Source of the DNA: a virus
Direction: 5' to 3' (one strand)
DNA: 29,085 bases
IMG/VR virus record: IMGVR_UViG_3300017971_000650
Location: 1 to 29,085 of that record
In this document: piece by piece, positions 5,202-13,332 of the stretch
How positions within the stretch are numbered: position 1 is the stretch's first letter
Layout: each line of letters starts with the position of its first letter
Made by a program: the position numbers and the translations under genes
The notes under the pieces: model-generated
Seen by the model: only the letters and a program-made list of their open reading frames with translations
The model's database searches: none
Told to the model about the DNA's origin: nothing

Positions 5202-5988
5202 AATCGAGGAATTTAACCCGGAGCGTAGAAAGCTATCCGACCTCGTAGAATTTCCAGACAACCCGAGGATCTTAACCCCGGAGCGTAGACAGTTCCTAAT
5301 AGACTCAGTAAACGAGAACGGAAGGACAAACCCACCGATAATAAATACCGATAATACGGTTATCGGAGGCAATCAAAGGCTAGAGGTATTTATGGAACTC
5401 TTCGGCCCGGATCAAGAAATATGGGTAATGGTTCCACCCCGGAAGCTGACCAAGAATGAAGCCGAGAAACTTAATCTCAGGGATAATGTCTCGATAGGAA
5501 AGTGGGATGGTGATATAATCGTAGAAAAATACGATGTAGAGTATCTACGGGGAATCGGTTTTGAAGATTTTGAACTCCTTGATATGGGATATAATTTTGT
5601 ATATGAAGATCCTGATGGTGAAGATCCTGACACGATCTATACTAAGAAGATTGAAGCACCTATCTATACACCCTCAGATGGTGAAACAGATATAAGAGAC
5701 CTCGTAAACCAAGAGAAGTATTGGAAGCTCGTAGAAGAGGTCGAGTCAGCTAAGATCCCGGCAGATGTAAAAGCCTTCCTAAAGTTTTCTGCCGCCAGAC
5801 ATTTATCCTTTGACTATAGCAAAATTGCTGATTACTATGCCAAAGCACCAGAAGAGGTACAGGGATTAATGGAGAAATCTGCCCTCGTTATAATAGATTT
5901 TAATAAAGCTATTGAAAATGGATATATAGAATTGTCAAAGAAGTTAAACGATTTATTCGACCAAGACTATGCCGGGGATGAAAACTAA
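5185..5988 (+). CDS. Phage ParB-like (ParB/Srx fold) protein
   Basis: 267 residues. The N-terminal half has the ParB/Srx-type layout: LSDLVEFPDNPRILTPE, then NGRTNPPIINTDNTVIGGNQRLEVF with a GGNQR turn in place of the ParB GxxR box (about residues 61-65), and LNLRDNVSIGKWD. The C-terminal half carries FSAARHLSFDYSKIADYYA and MEKSALVIIDFNKAIENGYIEL. I associate this with phage ParB-like proteins found beside DNA methylases or base-modification genes. ParB folds can be CTPases, nucleases or DNA-sensing adaptors. With a glycosyltransferase and a radical SAM enzyme next door, guiding or sensing DNA modification is the best guess. Partitioning is unlikely because there is no ParA. Confidence 0.7.
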   Translation: MAKQIKIEEFNPERRKLSDLVEFPDNPRILTPERRQFLIDSVNENGRTNPPIINTDNTVIGGNQRLEVFMELFGPDQEIWVMVPPRKLTKNEAEKLNLRDNVSIGKWDGDIIVEKYDVEYLRGIGFEDFELLDMGYNFVYEDPDGEDPDTIYTKKIEAPIYTPSDGETDIRDLVNQEKYWKLVEEVESAKIPADVKAFLKFSAARHLSFDYSKIADYYAKAPEEVQGLMEKSALVIIDFNKAIENGYIELSKKLNDLFDQDYAGDEN

Positions 5989-6829
5989 AAACTTTGCCGC
6001 CTTTATCCTTACACATGGAAGGCCAAACCACGTTGTAACATATAAGGCTCTACGTAGTGCAGGATACACAGGCAAAATATACCTCGTTTTAGATGATGAG
6101 GATAAAACGATTGACCTCTACAAAAAGGAATACGGGGATCAGGTTATTGTATTCTCAAAATCAAAGGTCTTGGATATAGTAAATATGGCAGACAACTTTG
6201 AAGGGACAGGATCTGTTTTGTATGCCCGTAATTATAATTGGGATCTTGCTGAGAGCCTTGGAGTCGATTATTTTATTCAGCTTGATGATGACTATAATCA
6301 TTTTCGATATAAGTTCAATTCTAATATTGAATACGGAGATTGGGCGATTAAGGATCTAGATAGTGTTTTTGATTCTATCCTAGAATATTACAAGAAGATC
6401 CCTGCCCTCAGTATTGCTCTAGCTCAGGGTGGAGACTTTATCGGTGGAGAAGATGGAACTTATGCTCAGTCATTAGGAACGAGAAGGAAAGCGATGAATA
6501 CTTTTATCTGTTCTACAAAAAGACGCTTTCAATTTATAGGTAGACACAACCACGATGTATCTACATATACTTTATTAGGAAGTCAAGGGCATCTATTTTT
6601 ACAGCTTAATCACTTAGCTATAAATCAACTAGCAACACAGTCTCTTCCTGGAGGATTAACAGAAGTGTATAAGGAGAAAGGAACGTATATCAAATCGTTC
6701 TATACTGTAATTCATAATCCCTCTTCCGTAAAGGTTGCTACGATAGGAACAAAGTTCAAGAGAATACATCACAAGGTGAATTGGAACAAGACTGTTCCGA
6801 AGATCCTCTCAGAAGATTATAAGAAATGA
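5978..6829 (+). CDS. TAGT-type DNA-base glycosyltransferase candidate
   Basis: 283 residues from ATG 5978 (preceded by GGGG; ATG 5969 is an alternative). The N-terminal LTHGRP (11-16), TYKALRSAGYTGKIYLVLDDED (21-42), YARNYNW (82-88) and the DxD-like QLDDDY (101-106) are hallmarks of the GT-A-fold glycosyltransferases that computational work linked to TET/JBP base hydroxylases in phages (TET-associated glycosyltransferases). FIGRHNHDVSTYTLLGSQG (187-205) supplies a later conserved Asp/Tyr segment. Family members are proposed to add sugars to modified bases. No TET/JBP enzyme lies in this window, so the acceptor is open. The gene overlaps both the ParB-like gene and the radical SAM gene. Confidence 0.7.
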   Translation: MKTKNFAAFILTHGRPNHVVTYKALRSAGYTGKIYLVLDDEDKTIDLYKKEYGDQVIVFSKSKVLDIVNMADNFEGTGSVLYARNYNWDLAESLGVDYFIQLDDDYNHFRYKFNSNIEYGDWAIKDLDSVFDSILEYYKKIPALSIALAQGGDFIGGEDGTYAQSLGTRRKAMNTFICSTKRRFQFIGRHNHDVSTYTLLGSQGHLFLQLNHLAINQLATQSLPGGLTEVYKEKGTYIKSFYTVIHNPSSVKVATIGTKFKRIHHKVNWNKTVPKILSEDYKK

Positions 6830-7791
6830 AGCCGAGAAAAAACGAAACGACAGCCGTAAACCACCGGGAAGTCCTTGAAGATATTGTGCCTGTCGGTGTG
6901 CATATAGAGGATTGGAAAGAGTGGAGAGAAAAATACAATGCCGCATCCCGGCTAGAGGTACAGGAATTTCCTCCGCAGATAAATATAGAGCTAACGGGAG
7001 CCTGTAACTACAAATGTCAGTTCTGCGTACAGAGCTATATGGATAGAACAAAGGGAGAAATACGGCACGAGGATTTCAAGAAAATTATTAATGAGGCTGT
7101 ATCTCTAGGAACGAGAAGTTTGAAACTGAGTAATTGGAACGAGCCGCTCCTTCATAATTACCTTGAAGATTATATACTCTATGCCCGGAAAGCAGGAATA
7201 TTTAATGTCTATATCTCTTCAAATGGATCTCTACTATCAAAAGACAGGGCAGAATCCCTTATCGAAGCCGGACTAACGAAGATATTTATTTCGCTAGATG
7301 CTACAAATGAGGAAACGTACTACAGGCAACGTGGCCAGAGGAACTATAAAAAAGTAGTGGAGAACATTATGAACCTTATTGAGATCCGGGGCAAAGGTAA
7401 ATTTCCTATCGTCAGGGTGAACTTTCTGAAAACCGAAATCAATAGAGGACAAGAGGGAGAGTTTGTCCGTATGTGGGAAGGCATAGCAGATATTGTAGGG
7501 ATACAGATAATGAACGAACTCCCGGATAAAGAATCAGGAGTACAAAGAGAAGAGGACAGGAGAGAAAGCTACAGGTGTTCATTCCCTTTCAAGCAGTTAG
7601 TCGTAAACCATGCCGGGCAGATCCTTCCCTGCTGTGTTATGTACGGAGCAAAGATGCCTCTCGGCAATATAGCGGATATGACTCTTAAAGAGGCTTGGAA
7701 CTCTCAGCAGATGAAAGACCTACAGAAACTCCATTTTGAAGGAAGGTTCGCAGAGAATCCTTATTGTAGGAGATGTATCTCAGGAAAATAA
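6826..7791 (+). CDS. Radical SAM enzyme with SPASM-type C-terminus
   Basis: 321 residues. CNYKCQFC (Cys60, 64, 67) is the CxxxCxxC site for the radical-SAM 4Fe-4S cluster. NWNEP (103-107) stands where the GGEP SAM-binding motif is expected. A C-terminal SPASM/twitch region has Cys251 (RCSFPF), Cys269/270 (ILPCC), LGNI..M.LKEAWNS, and Cys314/317 (NPYCRRC), enough for an auxiliary cluster. SPASM enzymes modify peptides, sugars or nucleosides by radical chemistry. Overlap with the glycosyltransferase (ATGA) strongly suggests a joint pathway, perhaps remodelling a base or its sugar. Substrate unknown. Confidence 0.85.
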   Translation: MKPRKNETTAVNHREVLEDIVPVGVHIEDWKEWREKYNAASRLEVQEFPPQINIELTGACNYKCQFCVQSYMDRTKGEIRHEDFKKIINEAVSLGTRSLKLSNWNEPLLHNYLEDYILYARKAGIFNVYISSNGSLLSKDRAESLIEAGLTKIFISLDATNEETYYRQRGQRNYKKVVENIMNLIEIRGKGKFPIVRVNFLKTEINRGQEGEFVRMWEGIADIVGIQIMNELPDKESGVQREEDRRESYRCSFPFKQLVVNHAGQILPCCVMYGAKMPLGNIADMTLKEAWNSQQMKDLQKLHFEGRFAENPYCRRCISGK

Positions 7792-8551: not shown

Positions 8552-8620
8552 ATGATGCCATTTCTAGCCTCGTACATAGCAGATATAGTGTTCAGTAGTA
8601 TATTACCCAAGATAAGATAA
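8552..8620 (+). CDS. Hydrophobic 22-aa micro-ORF coupled to terL
   Basis: ATG 8552 opens a frame encoding MMPFLASYIADIVFSSILPK plus IR and ends in TAA 8618-8620, sharing its last A with the ATG of the large terminase (TAATG). The same stop/start fusion occurs at 10107, 16151 and 19671, between real genes. The peptide is hydrophobic enough for one membrane helix. It may be a real micro-protein or only a leader that couples translation into terL; no homology can be claimed for so short a sequence. Confidence 0.35.
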   Translation: MMPFLASYIADIVFSSILPKIR

Positions 8621-10107
8621 TGGAAGCCGCTACGATTATAAAATCACTCCCTATAAGCAAGGTCGTTAAGATCCGTAAAGAATCTTACAAGGATTCATAT
8701 TGGCGATTCTTTAAGAACGCTTGGAAGGTTATCGAGCCAGAAACTACGCTAAAGGAGAATTGGCACATGATCTATATATGTGAAGAGCTAGAGAAAGTTG
8801 CCCGTAGAATTATCTCCGGTATCCCTAGAGATGCACACCTGATTATTAACGTACCGCCTGCTACCACGAAATCTACACTAATAACGGTTGCCTTCCCGGC
8901 TTGGTGTTGGATCTTAGAACCTAGCTTGAAGATCCTAACTATGAGCTATGCCTCAGATCTCGCCCTGATCCACGCTGTAAAATCTAGGGATATTATTCAG
9001 AGTAATTGGTATCAGGATTTATTCGGAGGGATCTTCTCGCTTAAGTATGACGTAAATAAGAAATCCGAATATCAGAACGATAGATACGGACACCGGATAG
9101 CCTTCGGGGTCGGGGGTGGAGCTACCGGAAAACATGGAGACCTGAATATTTGTGATGATCCTCTTAACCCGAAGATGGCCGCTTCAGAGGCAGAGACAAA
9201 AAAAGTAAACGATTGGTGGGATAATACTATATCGAACCGCTTTACTGATCCTCTCGTAGCTCAGAAGATCCTCGTAATGCAGAGGCTATCAAAGAACGAC
9301 CTTACGGGGCATTGCTTAACGAAAGGAGATAAGTACAGGCAAATATGCCTTCCTGCGGAGAAGAGCAAACATATAAAGCCTATAGAGAAAGCCTCGAAAT
9401 ACGTAAATGATCTATTGGATCCCGTAAGACTCTCTCGCCCTGTCCTCGAGGACTTCCGAGTGGAGCTTGGGGCGCAAGGCTACGCAGGACAGTACGGGCA
9501 GACTCCTACAGCCGAAGAGGGCAATCTCGTTAATCCTGAATGGTTTGGAAGGTTCGACATACCTACGATTATTCAAGAAGCCTTTAATCAGGGTGTAGAT
9601 CTCTCTTGGGACTTCTTTATTGACTCCGCATTTACGGAGAAAACGACCAACGCTCCTACGGCTATTATGGCGGCCGCTAGGATACTCGGACACCTTTACG
9701 TAAGGCATACGCAGAGGGTATGGATGGAACTCCCCGAGCTTATTAAGTTTATCCCCGGTTATGTCTCTGCTCATGGATACTCGGAAGGATCTCGGATATT
9801 TATCGAACCAAAAGCCTCTGGACTCCCTGCGGCACAGATGTTACGTAGATATACGAAGCTGAATATTATCCTCGATACCGCACCGACTACGGATAAAGTA
9901 TCTCGGCTTAAAGCCTGTCTGCCCTTTATGGAGGCAGGAAGGCAGAAACTCTTAAAGGATAGCGATTGGATAGAAATGTACTGCGGAGAGTTAAAGACAT
10001 TCCCGTTCTCAGATTATAAGGACTTGACCGATATAACTACTATGGCTATAAATAGGACACAAGAACAAGACTCCGGTGGAGAGATCTTTGGAATGGAGGC
10101 GATATAA
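8620..10107 (+). CDS. terL: Terminase large subunit
   Basis: 495 residues. The ATPase half has an atypical Walker A, NVPPATTKST (77-86), a coupling-region serine stretch (TMSYASDLA), and a Walker B-like LNICDD (175-180). The C-terminal RNase-H-like nuclease shows FFIDSAFTEK with a conserved Asp335, RIFIEPKASG with Glu near 400, and a late Asp in FPFSDYKDLTDI. This enzyme powers DNA packaging through the portal and cuts the concatemer. Length and domain order are normal for phage TerL. The gene is followed without a gap by the accessory island (TAATG overlap), where many phages would have portal and head genes. Confidence 0.93.
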   Translation: MEAATIIKSLPISKVVKIRKESYKDSYWRFFKNAWKVIEPETTLKENWHMIYICEELEKVARRIISGIPRDAHLIINVPPATTKSTLITVAFPAWCWILEPSLKILTMSYASDLALIHAVKSRDIIQSNWYQDLFGGIFSLKYDVNKKSEYQNDRYGHRIAFGVGGGATGKHGDLNICDDPLNPKMAASEAETKKVNDWWDNTISNRFTDPLVAQKILVMQRLSKNDLTGHCLTKGDKYRQICLPAEKSKHIKPIEKASKYVNDLLDPVRLSRPVLEDFRVELGAQGYAGQYGQTPTAEEGNLVNPEWFGRFDIPTIIQEAFNQGVDLSWDFFIDSAFTEKTTNAPTAIMAAARILGHLYVRHTQRVWMELPELIKFIPGYVSAHGYSEGSRIFIEPKASGLPAAQMLRRYTKLNIILDTAPTTDKVSRLKACLPFMEAGRQKLLKDSDWIEMYCGELKTFPFSDYKDLTDITTMAINRTQEQDSGGEIFGMEAI

Positions 10108-10502
10108 TGGTGTATCTAATAACAGGCAAGGCAGGAGCAGGGAAGAGCCACTACGGAAGGGCATTAGCGGAAGAGCTAAAGAGTGTCGGCCTTGATCCGG
10201 TATATATGAGTGGAGATATATGGAGAGCCTTGAATGATACTTCCCATCCGCTATACTTTACCGATGAAGGAAGGATCGAAAACCTTATGAGCGTAGCAAA
10301 GTGGGCGGCAGATCTAGAGGAAGATGGAAAGATCCCAATACTAGCTTTCGTAGCTCCTAAAAGAAAGTGGAGATATCGGATGCGTATGAGGTGGCAAAAA
10401 AGCAAAGTGATCTACATTCCGGGCGGGGAGCTTTGGACAGGATCTAGTTATGAGATCCCCGACCTTAATGAACAAAATACACTATGTCTGAAATTAATGT
10501 AA
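10107..10502 (+). CDS. APS-kinase-like (CysC-like) P-loop kinase
   Basis: 131 residues, short for CysC (usually near 180-200). A Walker A loop, GKAGAGKS (7-14), is followed by YMSGDIWR (34-40), matching the DGDxxR site, then FTDEGRIENL (51-60), matching the GFSxxxRxxNI segment. AFVAPKRKWRYRMR (80-93) matches the SPxRxxR segment, and IPGGELWTGSSYEIPD (104-119) stands where CysC has its late substrate-loop residues. APS kinase phosphorylates adenylylsulfate to PAPS, the sulfate donor. The sulfotransferase-like gene overlapping it by 19 bases makes this reaction likely. A different small-molecule kinase remains possible. Confidence 0.7.
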   Translation: MVYLITGKAGAGKSHYGRALAEELKSVGLDPVYMSGDIWRALNDTSHPLYFTDEGRIENLMSVAKWAADLEEDGKIPILAFVAPKRKWRYRMRMRWQKSKVIYIPGGELWTGSSYEIPDLNEQNTLCLKLM

Positions 10503-11122
10503 TCGTAGCTCAGAGCCGTACAGGGCATAACTTTATTTATCATCAGTTCCTATCTTGGAACACCCCGGATCAGGTCTCCCGGATAGAGGGATATTCGCCC
10601 GAGGATATTTCCGAGAATCAGGATCTTATATTCAGCCATAACAATAAGCATCTTAAATCTATCGAAGATCCCTCGCCTCGATACTTTATCGTTATCCGGG
10701 ACTTCGAGAATTGGCTAGCCTCTTATCTGCTTATGAAGATAGGACACAAGGCATTCGATAACGAGACGAAGGCATATAAAGATCCAAGAGCGGTAGATCA
10801 TAAGATCCGGGTATGGTTCGATATTTATTATGAGGCTATAGGCAGTACGAACTTCCTTCCTAATAAGACCGTAATTGATTACGATGAATTTAGAACATCA
10901 CAGGCATTCCGCATGGAAATATGTAAAGAGACAGGCGGTATATATACCGAGGATAATCTCAATAGCGTTCCTCTAGGTGGTTCTGGAAGTAGCTTTGACG
11001 GTCTGGACTATCAGGGCCGAGGGAGCGAGATGAAAACAGGAGAGCGTAAAGAGCAAATCAAAGGATCTTTTGTCGAGAAATATTATAACGAGTTACTAAA
11101 CAAATATCTATTAAAACTATGA
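10484..11122 (+). CDS. Sulfotransferase-like protein
   Basis: 212 residues with a P-loop-like 5'-phosphosulfate loop near the start (VAQSRTGHNFIYHQFLSW, residues 8-25), and an IRDFENWLASY segment (71-81) whose Arg and Ser fit the 3'-phosphate-binding site of PAPS sulfotransferases. A late GGSGSSFDG loop (165-173) resembles the C-terminal cofactor loop I associate with phage sulfotransferases. The enzyme would transfer sulfate from PAPS to a hydroxyl or amine. Overlap with the APS-kinase-like gene suggests a donor-plus-transferase pair. The acceptor may be a sugar on phage DNA, a virion glycan or a host surface molecule; the sequence does not decide. Confidence 0.65.
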   Translation: MSEINVIVAQSRTGHNFIYHQFLSWNTPDQVSRIEGYSPEDISENQDLIFSHNNKHLKSIEDPSPRYFIVIRDFENWLASYLLMKIGHKAFDNETKAYKDPRAVDHKIRVWFDIYYEAIGSTNFLPNKTVIDYDEFRTSQAFRMEICKETGGIYTEDNLNSVPLGGSGSSFDGLDYQGRGSEMKTGERKEQIKGSFVEKYYNELLNKYLLKL

Positions 11123-11637
11123 AACGATTATTTTTATTCTTATCCCTAGCTACGCTGATACGCTGTACTTGCCTTCCGCAGATACCGCCTCAATATGCTT
11201 ACGTAGATTCAAACTGTAACGCTATCCTAGAGGATTATCGGGGTATAGTTATAGCGACAGATAATTGCTCAGATGTTCAGATCCTCCAAGAACCTACGCC
11301 CGGACAGGTTATAGGAGTTACGACAGAGGTAATTCTCAGAGCTATAGACGGAAACGGTAACGAGTCCTCGGTAAGTTTTGAGGTTCGTCTCCTTGATACT
11401 ATTCCCCCGGATATTCAGCTTAATCCTGATTGGGCGTATGAATGGGGCGAAGTAGGTGATATGTGGTGGACTGTAGTTAAGCATACTCAGAAATCCTTTA
11501 TCGAAGGAAAGGAGTTGGTCGCTACTTGGGATACGCTCAGACTCCTACATGGGGCATTTACTGTTATGAACTTTACTATACCGATACCGGACTCCCTTAC
11601 CCATGATGTTTATTGGAATTATCTACTAACGAAATGA
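11119..11637 (+). CDS. Secreted HYR-like Ig-fold protein
   Basis: 172 residues with a Sec-type leader (MKRLFLFLSLATLIRCTC) ending near residue 18. The two Cys there lack a proper lipobox because Arg precedes the first. Residues about 30-95 (DSNCNAILEDY...ATDNCSDVQILQEPTPG...VILRAIDGNGNESSVSFEVRLLDTIPP) follow the HYR (hyalin-repeat) Ig-like pattern common in Bacteroidetes surface proteins, with Cys33 and Cys50 in the usual places. The second half is Trp-rich and unrecognised. It would be exported to the periplasm or cell surface of the infected host, an unusual cargo between packaging and tail genes. It overlaps both neighbours (ATGA). Confidence 0.55.
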   Translation: MKRLFLFLSLATLIRCTCLPQIPPQYAYVDSNCNAILEDYRGIVIATDNCSDVQILQEPTPGQVIGVTTEVILRAIDGNGNESSVSFEVRLLDTIPPDIQLNPDWAYEWGEVGDMWWTVVKHTQKSFIEGKELVATWDTLRLLHGAFTVMNFTIPIPDSLTHDVYWNYLLTK

Positions 11638-11891: not shown

Positions 11892-12796
11892 CACTAAATT
11901 ACGATACTAAAAAGACTCATTTTCAGTTCGACTCTTCCCGTATGGTACGGGTAAAGGGAGATGATCTGAGTTGGAGGGACTCTATCGGGTGGACTGTCCT
12001 CGCTTGGCTCTCTAACGGGAAGCCGAAGAAACTATCTAATGCCCTCGATAATTGCTTGAAATATAACTCAGAGAAAAATATCTATGAGCTACGTAGACAC
12101 CCTTTACACATGGAGAAATCTTCTCGGGATCATTGGTCGTATTATATCTTATTCCTTAAGCTGAGAGAGACAGCCGAAGGGATACCTATGAAGCTATCGT
12201 TTTTAAGCGTTATGAAGAGACTTCCTAGTATGAGAGGTATGAACCTATGGATAAAGGCTCTACGAGGCGAGAGACGAGCTGAGAGGTTGTTCTACGCTAT
12301 TCAGATCCCCGGAGCTTGGATAGCTCTTAAGTGGTACAACTTTATTCGGTGGGCGTGTGATTTTCACCGGGAATGTCCAGAGGCTATATGGGATCAGTTC
12401 CGGGGAGAGATCCTCGAGGGTATGAGCCGCAGACAAAAAATAGGAAGGAAGATAATAATGAAGACCGTACCGCCATACTCTCTACAGGTTAAGGCTTGGC
12501 AGTTATTTATTATGAATCCTTCTGAGAAACTTAATCGCCTGAAGAGGATACTCGTAAAGCGTACAGGGCCGTATAATTATCAGCTTCATAAATTACTAGG
12601 ATCTAATGTCGATGAACTCCTAGCTAGTGGAGCGACTATTCGTAGCCTATCTGAGAGGTACAGGCAAATGACCGGAGATAGATTCGGAGTTAATCTAGAT
12701 GAATCTAATGACCGGGATGTGCATTTTTGTACCGAAGAGGAAACAGAATATAATAATCTCGAGAGAATGATTCTCGATTATATCTATAGCCTATGA
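11888..12796 (+). CDS. Unrecognised 302-aa protein of the accessory island
   Basis: 302 residues, rich in Trp, Arg and Met. Noticeable segments are VKGDDLSWRDSIGWTVLAWL (about 22-41), ELRRHPLHMEKSSRDHWSYYILFLKL (about 68-93) with clustered Arg/His/Asp, and a helical second half (KAWQLFIMNPSEKLNRLKRILVKR). The RHP...SRDH cluster looks like an active-site or metal-binding stretch, but I cannot name a family. No signal peptide or clear membrane helix is present, so it is probably cytoplasmic. It lies between the hydrophobic small protein and the methyltransferase with 4-base overlaps on both sides, so it belongs to the same operon. Confidence 0.6.
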   Translation: MTLNYDTKKTHFQFDSSRMVRVKGDDLSWRDSIGWTVLAWLSNGKPKKLSNALDNCLKYNSEKNIYELRRHPLHMEKSSRDHWSYYILFLKLRETAEGIPMKLSFLSVMKRLPSMRGMNLWIKALRGERRAERLFYAIQIPGAWIALKWYNFIRWACDFHRECPEAIWDQFRGEILEGMSRRQKIGRKIIMKTVPPYSLQVKAWQLFIMNPSEKLNRLKRILVKRTGPYNYQLHKLLGSNVDELLASGATIRSLSERYRQMTGDRFGVNLDESNDRDVHFCTEEETEYNNLERMILDYIYSL

Positions 12797-13332
12797 AAAC
12801 GATGCGAGATCATAACCTACATGAGAAGATAAAGTACGAGACTATCTGGAAGGAACACGAGTATGAGAGCAATACGGCATTTAATTTCGCTACCTATCTA
12901 AAGGATATTGTAATCGGAAGGTGCTTAGATCTAGGATGCGGAAACGGAACGACTGTACTGCGATTAAGGGATCTAGATATTGATTGTCATGGCGTAGATA
13001 TTACCCTTGCCGGAGTCCCGGATGAAGTAAAAAATATTATCCCTCACCGCTTCCATGAAGCACCTATCTGGCAGACTAAGTTCAAGCCGGATCTGTTTCA
13101 ATATTCCTTCTCTACGGATGTAATGGAGCATATCCCTACAGAGATGGTTCCGAGGACTATTAGAGAGATCTCTCGGATAACTACTATGAAAACTATTCAC
13201 CAGATCTGTACCCGAGATGCCGTAAAGAATTATTCGGGATATAAGGTACATCTGACCGTAAGGGATATTGATTGGTGGGAGTTTATGTTTAAGAAATATT
13301 GTATCGTTCCCTATGAACTAAAGGAGATATGA
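12793..13332 (+). CDS. Class I SAM-dependent methyltransferase
   Basis: 179 residues. CLDLGCGNGT (44-53) is motif I of Rossmann-fold methyltransferases. HGVDIT (66-71) supplies the acidic residue at the end of strand 2, and FQYSFSTDVMEHIP (102-115) is the motif IV-like region of the type 11/12 groups that act on small molecules, sugars or lipids. No DPPY/NPPF motif is seen, so it is not a standard DNA adenine or N4-cytosine methylase. It may tailor the product of the neighbouring transferase. It starts in an ATGA overlap and ends in another. Confidence 0.7.
   Translation: MKTMRDHNLHEKIKYETIWKEHEYESNTAFNFATYLKDIVIGRCLDLGCGNGTTVLRLRDLDIDCHGVDITLAGVPDEVKNIIPHRFHEAPIWQTKFKPDLFQYSFSTDVMEHIPTEMVPRTIREISRITTMKTIHQICTRDAVKNYSGYKVHLTVRDIDWWEFMFKKYCIVPYELKEI

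What the first reader, a model, noticed from the sequence alone, without database searches (positions are those of the whole stretch)
10107..11122. Phage PAPS kinase plus sulfotransferase pair
A compact APS-kinase-like protein overlaps by 19 bases a protein with both PAPS-binding signatures. Together they would make and use the sulfate donor, a self-contained phage sulfation pathway. It is placed directly after terL. Possible acceptors are a sugar placed on DNA by the nearby glycosyltransferase, virion glycans or host surface polysaccharide.
Basis: partly seen in the sequence, partly recalled or inferred. Interest (0 to 1): 0.75.

Follow-up and report, generated by a model that had tools for sequence, protein, structure and literature searches.

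The report
Phage sulfate-donor kinase and sulfotransferase pair
A phage carries two overlapping genes that most likely make the cell's activated sulfate (PAPS) and then attach sulfate to some molecule, probably a sugar; relatives of the kinase gene in 40 other viral fragments also sit next to or near sulfotransferase genes, which suggests a widespread but undescribed phage sulfation module.

Summary
Two overlapping ORFs follow terL: a 131-aa kinase (10107-10502) and a 212-aa protein (10484-11122), 19-nt overlap. The kinase is a compact member of the APS kinase family (PF01583 51.7 bits, cut-off 21.1). Its AlphaFold2 model (pLDDT 91.7) matches 30 APS kinase entries (VIA Z 17.3-14.1) ahead of the next family (gluconate kinase, 12.3). 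It lacks most of the usual substrate lid. The second protein has no library hit, but shows both PAPS-binding signatures with canonical spacing (R72, S80), and a modest model (pLDDT 62) whose 25 best Foldseek matches are all sulfotransferases. The strongest evidence is comparative: 42 viral loci were found by kinase sequence alone. In the 40 where the neighbourhood is visible, a sulfotransferase lies beside the kinase (36) or within about 2 kb (4), from different families and in both gene orders. A kinase whose partners change but are always sulfotransferases most likely makes PAPS. Not supported: 'self-contained' (no ATP sulfurylase found in the window, so APS must come from the host) and a DNA-linked acceptor (the DNA-type glycosyltransferase is absent from 15 other kinase records). 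A glycan acceptor is favoured but unproven.

The parts
8620..10107 (+). terminase large subunit, immediately upstream; shares one base (TAATG) with the kinase start
   Evidence: PHROG 38 E 9e-77; closest annotated relatives are phages of Flavobacteriia
10107..10502 (+). compact APS-kinase-family protein, 131 aa, proposed to convert APS + ATP to PAPS
   Evidence: PF01583 E 1.3e-13; AF2 pLDDT 91.7; best structural matches all APS kinases; relatives in 42 viral loci
10125..10148 (+). P-loop GKAGAGKS (aa 7-14)
   Evidence: sequence; invariant G7, K8, A11, G12, K13 in alignment A1
10422..10460 (+). GGELWTGSSYEIP motif (aa 106-118), which replaces the longer KGLYKKAR...FTGIDxxYEAP lid of ordinary APS kinases
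   Evidence: alignment with CysC; motif GG-x-LW-x-[GN]-x-x-Y-x-x-P found in 34 of 42 kinase loci and in the window
10484..10502 (+). 19-base overlap of the two reading frames
10484..11122 (+). divergent PAPS-sulfotransferase-like protein, 212 aa
   Evidence: no Pfam, PHROG or NCBIfam hit; AF2 pLDDT 62.3; top 25 Foldseek PDB matches all sulfotransferases; VIA Z up to 9.9
10514..10531 (+). 5'-phosphosulfate-loop-like signature SRTGHN (aa 11-16); relatives have RRSGNH or KRSAGH
   Evidence: alignments A2-A4
10691..10723 (+). 3'-phosphate-binding-like signature VIRDFENWLAS (aa 70-80; R72 and S80, spacing 8)
   Evidence: R72, D73, N76, A79, S80 invariant in A4
10985..11002 (+). GSSFDG motif (aa 168-173), invariant GxGSSF in this sulfotransferase family; possible third cofactor contact
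   Evidence: G168, S169, S170, F171 invariant in A4; role inferred
11119..11637 (+). next ORF, overlapping the sulfotransferase stop (ATGA); lipoprotein-like 172-aa protein; may be co-translated
   Evidence: only a weak HYR hit (E 0.52)
12793..13332 (+). class I SAM methyltransferase in the same gene run
   Evidence: PF13649 E 5.6e-8; methyltransferases are also the commonest neighbours of the kinase elsewhere
5969..6829 (+). TAGT-type glycosyltransferase upstream of terL; possible but unproven partner
   Evidence: PF20691 E 3.4e-33; absent from 15 other kinase records

Best explanation
The two genes form a late, phage-encoded sulfation unit. The 131-aa protein is a minimal APS kinase that 3'-phosphorylates host-made APS to PAPS. 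The 212-aa protein is a divergent PAPS-dependent sulfotransferase that moves the sulfuryl group from PAPS to an acceptor. The acceptor is most likely a sugar: a glycan on the virion or on the host surface made in the late phase of infection. Shown here: the ORFs, family membership and fold of the kinase, sulfotransferase-like signatures and a sulfotransferase-like (modest-confidence) fold of the partner, and conserved kinase-sulfotransferase pairing. Inferred: APS as the substrate, PAPS as the donor, catalysis. Inferred more weakly: a glycan acceptor and late expression.
For: Kinase: PF01583 above cut-off; PDB sequence matches led by APS kinases, E 2e-7 alone and 1e-18 as a profile; AF2 pLDDT 91.7; Foldseek ranks 1-24 and VIA ranks 1-30 are APS kinases or bifunctional ATP sulfurylase/APS kinase entries, with a Z gap to gluconate kinase (14.1 vs 12.3); residues matching CysC motifs, D37, R40, R56, N59 and P84, are kept. 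Partner: 5' and 3' PAPS signatures invariant across the family; 25 of 25 best Foldseek hits are sulfotransferases, VIA Z 9.9 over 172 residues. Pairing: 42 viral loci fetched by kinase sequence only. 35 have an adjacent Sulfotransfer_3-like gene (Pfam; profile hits tyrosylprotein sulfotransferases at E 1e-10). L043 has a clear adjacent PF13469 gene (E 5e-22). L039 and L044-L046 have a long protein, GT9-type in L045, whose C-terminal part belongs to the window's own sulfotransferase family. The two remaining loci are cut inside the kinase. In the tree the window kinase nests among kinases paired with Sulfotransfer_3, so partner families were exchanged while the function 'sulfotransferase' stayed. 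Glycan acceptor: neighbours include methyltransferases, GT2, sugar-binding GTs, epimerases and a DegT aminotransferase; ST-GT fusions in L039/L044/L045 and probably L065.
Against: No biochemical data. The kinase scores far below the NCBIfam apsK equivalog cut-off (48.8 vs 138.7 bits), lacks most of the APS-binding lid, and has Ser35 where nearly all relatives have Asp (first D of DGD). The sulfotransferase model is of modest confidence (pLDDT 62; the 5' loop is under 50), and no sequence-profile library recognises the family; profile comparison with the Sulfotransfer_3 set was inconclusive (E 0.07). The window holds no recognised ATP sulfurylase. The acceptor is unidentified. A 341-kb viral record carries a window-type sulfotransferase domain without any APS kinase, so the transferase does not always need the kinase. 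Many of the 42 loci are related to each other, so pairings are not 42 independent events (at least four partner or order arrangements).
Confidence: 0.74

Rival explanations
1. The kinase acts on a PAPS-like nucleotide other than APS, as Campylobacter Cj1415 does (it helps make CDP-phosphoramidate 3'-phosphate), and the partner transfers that group (for example a phosphoramidate) rather than sulfate.
For: Cj1415-Cj1418 are required to make the 3'-phosphorylated CDP-phosphoramidate donor (PMC11800397; that Cj1415 resembles APS kinases is own knowledge). Some relatives of the window kinase are fused to or beside a cytidylyltransferase-like protein (L009, L039, L044, L045). The lid that contacts APS is shortened.
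Against: The partners are recognised sulfotransferases in most loci, with a profile matching tyrosylprotein sulfotransferases. Most loci, the window included, show no cytidylyltransferase beside the kinase. The closest folds are genuine APS kinases.
Confidence: 0.1
2. Sulfation of modified DNA: the pair sulfates a sugar placed on phage DNA by the TAGT glycosyltransferase.
For: TAGT is present 3.3 kb upstream of the pair; the family is tied to di-glucosylated cytosine in T-even-type phages (PMC13390438). A paper cites an earlier computational study (Iyer 2013, not readable here) as reporting glycosylation and sulfation systems in phages (PMC10829341).
Against: TAGT is missing from 15 other kinase-bearing records, up to 97 kb long, and no thymidylate-synthase-type hydroxymethylase is found in any of the 16. 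The window itself may be incomplete, so enzymes outside it cannot be excluded.
Confidence: 0.1
3. The acceptor is a protein or small molecule (for example tyrosine on a virion protein, a lipid or a sulfolipid) rather than a glycan. This shares the PAPS mechanism with the best explanation and differs only in the acceptor.
For: The Sulfotransfer_3 partners of related kinases match tyrosylprotein sulfotransferases in the PDB; acceptor specificity cannot be read from the sequence.
Against: Neighbourhoods are rich in sugar-synthesis genes, and the window's own sulfotransferase family is fused to glycosyltransferase-type domains elsewhere.
Confidence: 0.2
4. The kinase is a generic small-molecule kinase (gluconate-type or nicotinamide riboside kinase in NAD salvage) and its place beside a sulfotransferase is incidental.
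For: Gluconate kinases are the next structural relatives; NMNAT-like proteins are fused to or beside it in some phages, including isolated phage DLP_6.
Against: Pairing with sulfotransferases in 40 of 40 readable loci, with changing sulfotransferase families and gene order; clear structural preference for APS kinases.
Confidence: 0.06

Closest known systems
APS kinase CysC / APS kinase domain of PAPS synthase (PF01583, TIGR00455)
   Same: P-loop, second Asp of DGD (D37), R40, R56/N59, P84 and the final YExP stretch are kept; fold matches Archaeoglobus 7yq0 (Z 17.3) and human PAPSS1 2ofw (Z 16.2).
   Different: 131 aa instead of about 170-200; the KGLYKKAR...FTG lid is replaced by GG-x-LW-x-G; Ser35 replaces the first Asp of DGD; well below the equivalog cut-off; no relative of this compact form found in 84,980 species genomes by pattern search.
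Cytosolic and bacterial PAPS sulfotransferases (SULT fold; Sulfotransfer_1/3)
   Same: 5' and 3' PAPS-binding signatures with canonical spacing; the model's best fold matches are SULTs, TPST2, StaL and polyketide sulfotransferase domains.
   Different: Very short (212 aa); not recognised by any Pfam, PHROG or NCBIfam model; 5' loop reads RTGHN instead of RSGTT; family-specific GxGSSF motif.
Sulfotransferase genes previously noted in phages (e.g. OM43 phages, PMC10580990; glacier-ice phages, PMC8290583)
   Same: Phage-borne sulfotransferase; authors of the OM43 study state that its function is unclear.
   Different: Those passages report the transferase alone; the pairing with a dedicated APS kinase was not found in the held literature.
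Campylobacter Cj1415 pathway (CDP-phosphoramidate 3'-phosphate)
   Same: An APS-kinase relative (own knowledge) that prepares a 3'-phosphorylated donor for decorating a surface glycan.
   Different: Uses CDP-phosphoramidate; no phosphoramidate-pathway gene was recognised in the window, though Cj1416-Cj1418 homologues were not searched for by name.

Membership tests
APS kinase (PF01583) | Score above the Pfam gathering threshold | tested here: met
   51.7 bits against 21.1
APS kinase (PF01583) | APS kinase fold rather than another P-loop kinase | tested here: met
   VIA ranks 1-30 are APS kinases, Z 17.3-14.1; gluconate kinase 12.3
APS kinase (PF01583) | P-loop, DGDxxR, RxxN, (S/A)P motifs | tested here: met
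   GKAGAGKS; SGDIWR (first D is S in the window); RIEN; AP
CysC-type APS kinase | Full KGLYKKAR...FTG substrate lid | tested here: not met
   Replaced by GG-x-LW-x-G-x-x-Y-x-x-P, in the window and in relatives
CysC equivalog (TIGR00455) | Score above the equivalog cut-off, which NCBI uses to assign APS kinase function | tested here: not met
   48.8 bits against 138.7
APS kinase (PF01583) | Phosphorylates APS at the 3' position | not testable with these tools
   Needs an enzyme assay
PAPS sulfotransferase superfamily | 5'-phosphosulfate loop and 3'-phosphate-binding motif | tested here: met
   R12-T-G-H; R72...S80, spacing 8; R12, R72 and S80 invariant in A4
PAPS sulfotransferase superfamily | Sulfotransferase fold | tested here: inconclusive
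   Best 25 Foldseek hits all sulfotransferases, but E no better than 2e-3; VIA Z 9.9, rmsd 4.1 over 172 residues; model pLDDT 62
Sulfotransfer_1/2/3/4 (Pfam) | Match to a Pfam sulfotransferase model | tested here: not met
   No Pfam match at E up to 1; PF13469 absent from the window record
PAPS sulfotransferase superfamily | PAPS-dependent sulfuryl transfer | not testable with these tools
   Needs an enzyme assay
Self-contained sulfate activation to PAPS | ATP sulfurylase in the same genome | tested here: not met
   No PF01747 match in the window record; the window may be a fragment, and the CysD/CysN type was not searched separately

The most novel reading that the evidence does not exclude
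Phages carry a dedicated, modular sulfation cassette: a near-lidless class of APS kinase found so far only in viruses, exchangeable sulfotransferases (including a new family fused to glycosyltransferases), and in some relatives a minimal HxGH nucleotidyltransferase fused or adjacent to the kinase that would act as a miniature ATP sulfurylase, so that such phages turn sulfate into sulfated glycans on virions or host surface by themselves.
Probability: 0.15. Interest if true: 0.85.

Novelty: new variant of a known kind. Interest (0 to 1): 0.62.

Why it matters
Sulfotransferases have been noted in phage genomes with unknown function (OM43 phages, PMC10580990). A dedicated PAPS-making kinase attached to them would show that phages invest in the donor as well as the transferase, so sulfation during infection is likely real and selected. 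Sulfated phage glycans could affect receptor binding, exclusion of other phages and recognition by host defences, and they are directly testable with 35S-sulfate or mass spectrometry. The kinase also extends the APS kinase family to a nearly lidless form, a useful case for how substrate lids evolve.

Tried and rejected
Single-sequence search of viral contigs with the sulfotransferase found no relative; only alignments reached its family. tblastn of the kinases in 50,697 phage records gave only ordinary CysC-like proteins or DLP_6, and tblastn of the sulfotransferases gave nothing. Genome-contig search with the kinase alignment found nothing. Profile comparison of the window sulfotransferase family with the Sulfotransfer_3 set was inconclusive. 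A TerL search for close relatives with an empty site gave only distant contigs (30-31%), so insertion of the pair could not be dated. Considered and lowered: NAD-salvage kinase, DNA sulfation, phosphoramidate donor (see rivals). Literature searches combining phage with sulfotransferase plus APS kinase, adenylylsulfate kinase or cysC returned no relevant paper; Iyer 2013 and Taylor and Raushel 2018 are not held. The PDB profile search with the sulfotransferase alignment gave only an irrelevant E 0.46 hit.

Full report
WHAT IS THERE. ORF calling confirms the two frames: 10107-10502 (131 aa) and 10484-11122 (212 aa), overlapping by 19 bases. terL (8620-10107) shares one base with the first (TAATG) and the second shares four with the following ORF at 11119 (ATGA), so terL, kinase, sulfotransferase and the 172-aa lipoprotein-like ORF form one tight run. 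terL is most like those of phage vB_RanS_PJN03 and of Cellulophaga, Croceibacter and Chryseobacterium phages (34-40% identity), so a Bacteroidota host is likely. The window is a 29-kb virus record and may be a fragment.

THE KINASE. Pfam APS_kinase matches at E 1.3e-13, 51.7 bits against a cut-off of 21.1. NCBIfam apsK matches residues 2-102 but far below the equivalog cut-off (48.8 vs 138.7). Ten sequences from the window and viral loci align over the whole length. The AF2 model has pLDDT 91.7. Foldseek's first 24 PDB hits are APS kinases; VIA ranks 1-30 are APS kinases or bifunctional ATP sulfurylase/APS kinase entries (Z 17.3-14.1, 114-121 residues, rmsd 1.7-2.5), then gluconate kinase at 12.3. 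This motif is present in 34 of 42 kinase loci and the window, whereas CysC-like proteins met in the phage records have the ordinary lid (L058, L059, L060). The window departs from its relatives at one nearly invariant position, Ser35 for Asp.

THE SECOND PROTEIN. No match in Pfam, PHROGs or NCBIfam. Its relatives are the C-terminal part of a 584-594-aa phage protein in L039 and L044-L046 whose N-terminus is Glyco_transf_9 in L045 (E 3.1e-9; similarity), the N-terminus of a 1003-aa protein of a 341-kb viral contig (L065), and cellular proteins of Symploca (L052, L053) and a Thermoanaerobaculales MAG (L054). They share R[ST]xGH or RSGNH near the N-terminus, RDxxNxxAS with R-to-S spacing of 8, and SSF near the C-terminus. 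These look like the 5' and 3' PAPS-binding motifs plus a family-specific motif. The AF2 model is modest (pLDDT 62, pTM 0.63), but the top 25 Foldseek hits are all sulfotransferases (best E 1.8e-3) and VIA gives Z 9.9 to SULT1C3 over 172 residues. I take this as good evidence for a sulfotransferase-like fold, short of proof.

THE PAIRING. Loci were fetched by kinase sequence alone (patterns MVYLITGK and Y[IL]PGG[TEN]LW), so there is no selection for sulfotransferases. Of 42 loci, 35 carry an adjacent gene of one Sulfotransfer_3-like family (Pfam E 2e-7 for L002; its profile hits tyrosylprotein sulfotransferases at E 1e-10). L043 has a different, clear PF13469 gene next to it (E 5e-22). L039 and L044-L046 have the window-type sulfotransferase domain in a long fusion protein within about 2 kb. 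L048 and L050 begin inside the kinase gene, so one side is unseen. The adjacent Sulfotransfer_3 gene lies upstream in 24 loci and downstream in 11. On the kinase tree the window kinase falls among kinases with the Sulfotransfer_3 partner (support values were not examined), so the partner seems to have been exchanged for an unrelated sulfotransferase while the pairing stayed. These loci are not all independent; I count at least four arrangements. Kinase pairs show strong purifying selection (dN/dS about 0.1 for L044/L045 and 0.08 for L010/L012).

HOW IT LIKELY WORKS. Host ATP sulfurylase makes APS; the phage kinase makes PAPS; the phage sulfotransferase uses it. The window has no PF01747 ATP sulfurylase, so 'self-contained' is not right. 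For the acceptor, 81 upstream neighbours of the kinase in other loci are rich in methyltransferases, radical SAM proteins, GT2 and sugar-binding glycosyltransferases, epimerases, transketolases, and one DegT aminotransferase, i.e. glycan synthesis and decoration. Together with the GT-ST fusions this favours a glycan. The nearby TAGT glycosyltransferase of the window is a DNA-glucosylation family in T-even phages (PMC13390438), but it is absent from 15 other kinase records and no thymidylate-synthase-type hydroxymethylase is found; DNA is a minority option.

RIVALS. Cj1415, which I know as an APS-kinase relative, works on CDP-phosphoramidate (PMC11800397), and some phage kinases are fused to or beside a cytidylyltransferase- or NMNAT-like protein (L009, L039, L044, L045, DLP_6). 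That protein could equally be a minimal ATP sulfurylase: one copy gives a sub-threshold ATP-sulfurylase hit (E 0.007; 1.6e-4 in the single-record search). Neither is established.

NOVELTY. Phage sulfotransferases have been reported as lone genes with unclear function (PMC10580990; PMC8290583), and a computational study cited in PMC10829341 is said to have proposed glycosylation/sulfation systems in phages; I could not read it. I found no report of the kinase-sulfotransferase pair, but the library lacks most subscription journals. I rate it a new variant of a known kind.

Noticed in passing
L009 8001-8720; L039 5346-5786; L044 3884-4249; L045 4635-4991; L057 4001-4732 (phage DLP_6, AMQ65958.1): APS-kinase-type domain fused to or beside a ~110-aa HxGH nucleotidyltransferase (GRYQPxHxGH, GRDVGW/Y, ISATxIR); phrog_10255 covers the fusion. 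Function unknown; candidates are a minimal ATP sulfurylase, NMNAT-like or cytidylyltransferase.
   Followed up: partly
L045 2298-4070; L044 1544-3328; L039 3595-5349; L065 4737-7748: Proteins joining the window's sulfotransferase family to a glycosyltransferase (GT9 type) or a putative MptE/DUF115-like region, hinting that the acceptor is a sugar.
   Followed up: partly
L052 5569-6453, L053 5515-6465 (Symploca), L054 5521-6357 (Thermoanaerobaculales): Uncharacterised cellular family (RRSGNH ... RDPFNTLAS ... GGGSSFEG) without any Pfam or NCBIfam model; probably a new PAPS sulfotransferase family.
   Followed up: partly
L005 / record G013 (14 kb): Three or four Sulfotransfer_3 matches within one 14-kb phage fragment, plus sugar-transferase-like genes.
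   Followed up: no
window 6826-7791: Radical SAM/SPASM protein directly after the TAGT glycosyltransferase; radical SAM genes also recur upstream of the kinase in other loci (6 of 81 neighbours).
   Followed up: no
L012 5531-6202; L013 6076-6675: Additional sulfotransferases of another type (Sulfotransfer_2, PF03567; E 1.7e-11 in L012, sub-threshold in L013) within 3 kb of the kinase, so some phages carry two kinds.
   Followed up: no
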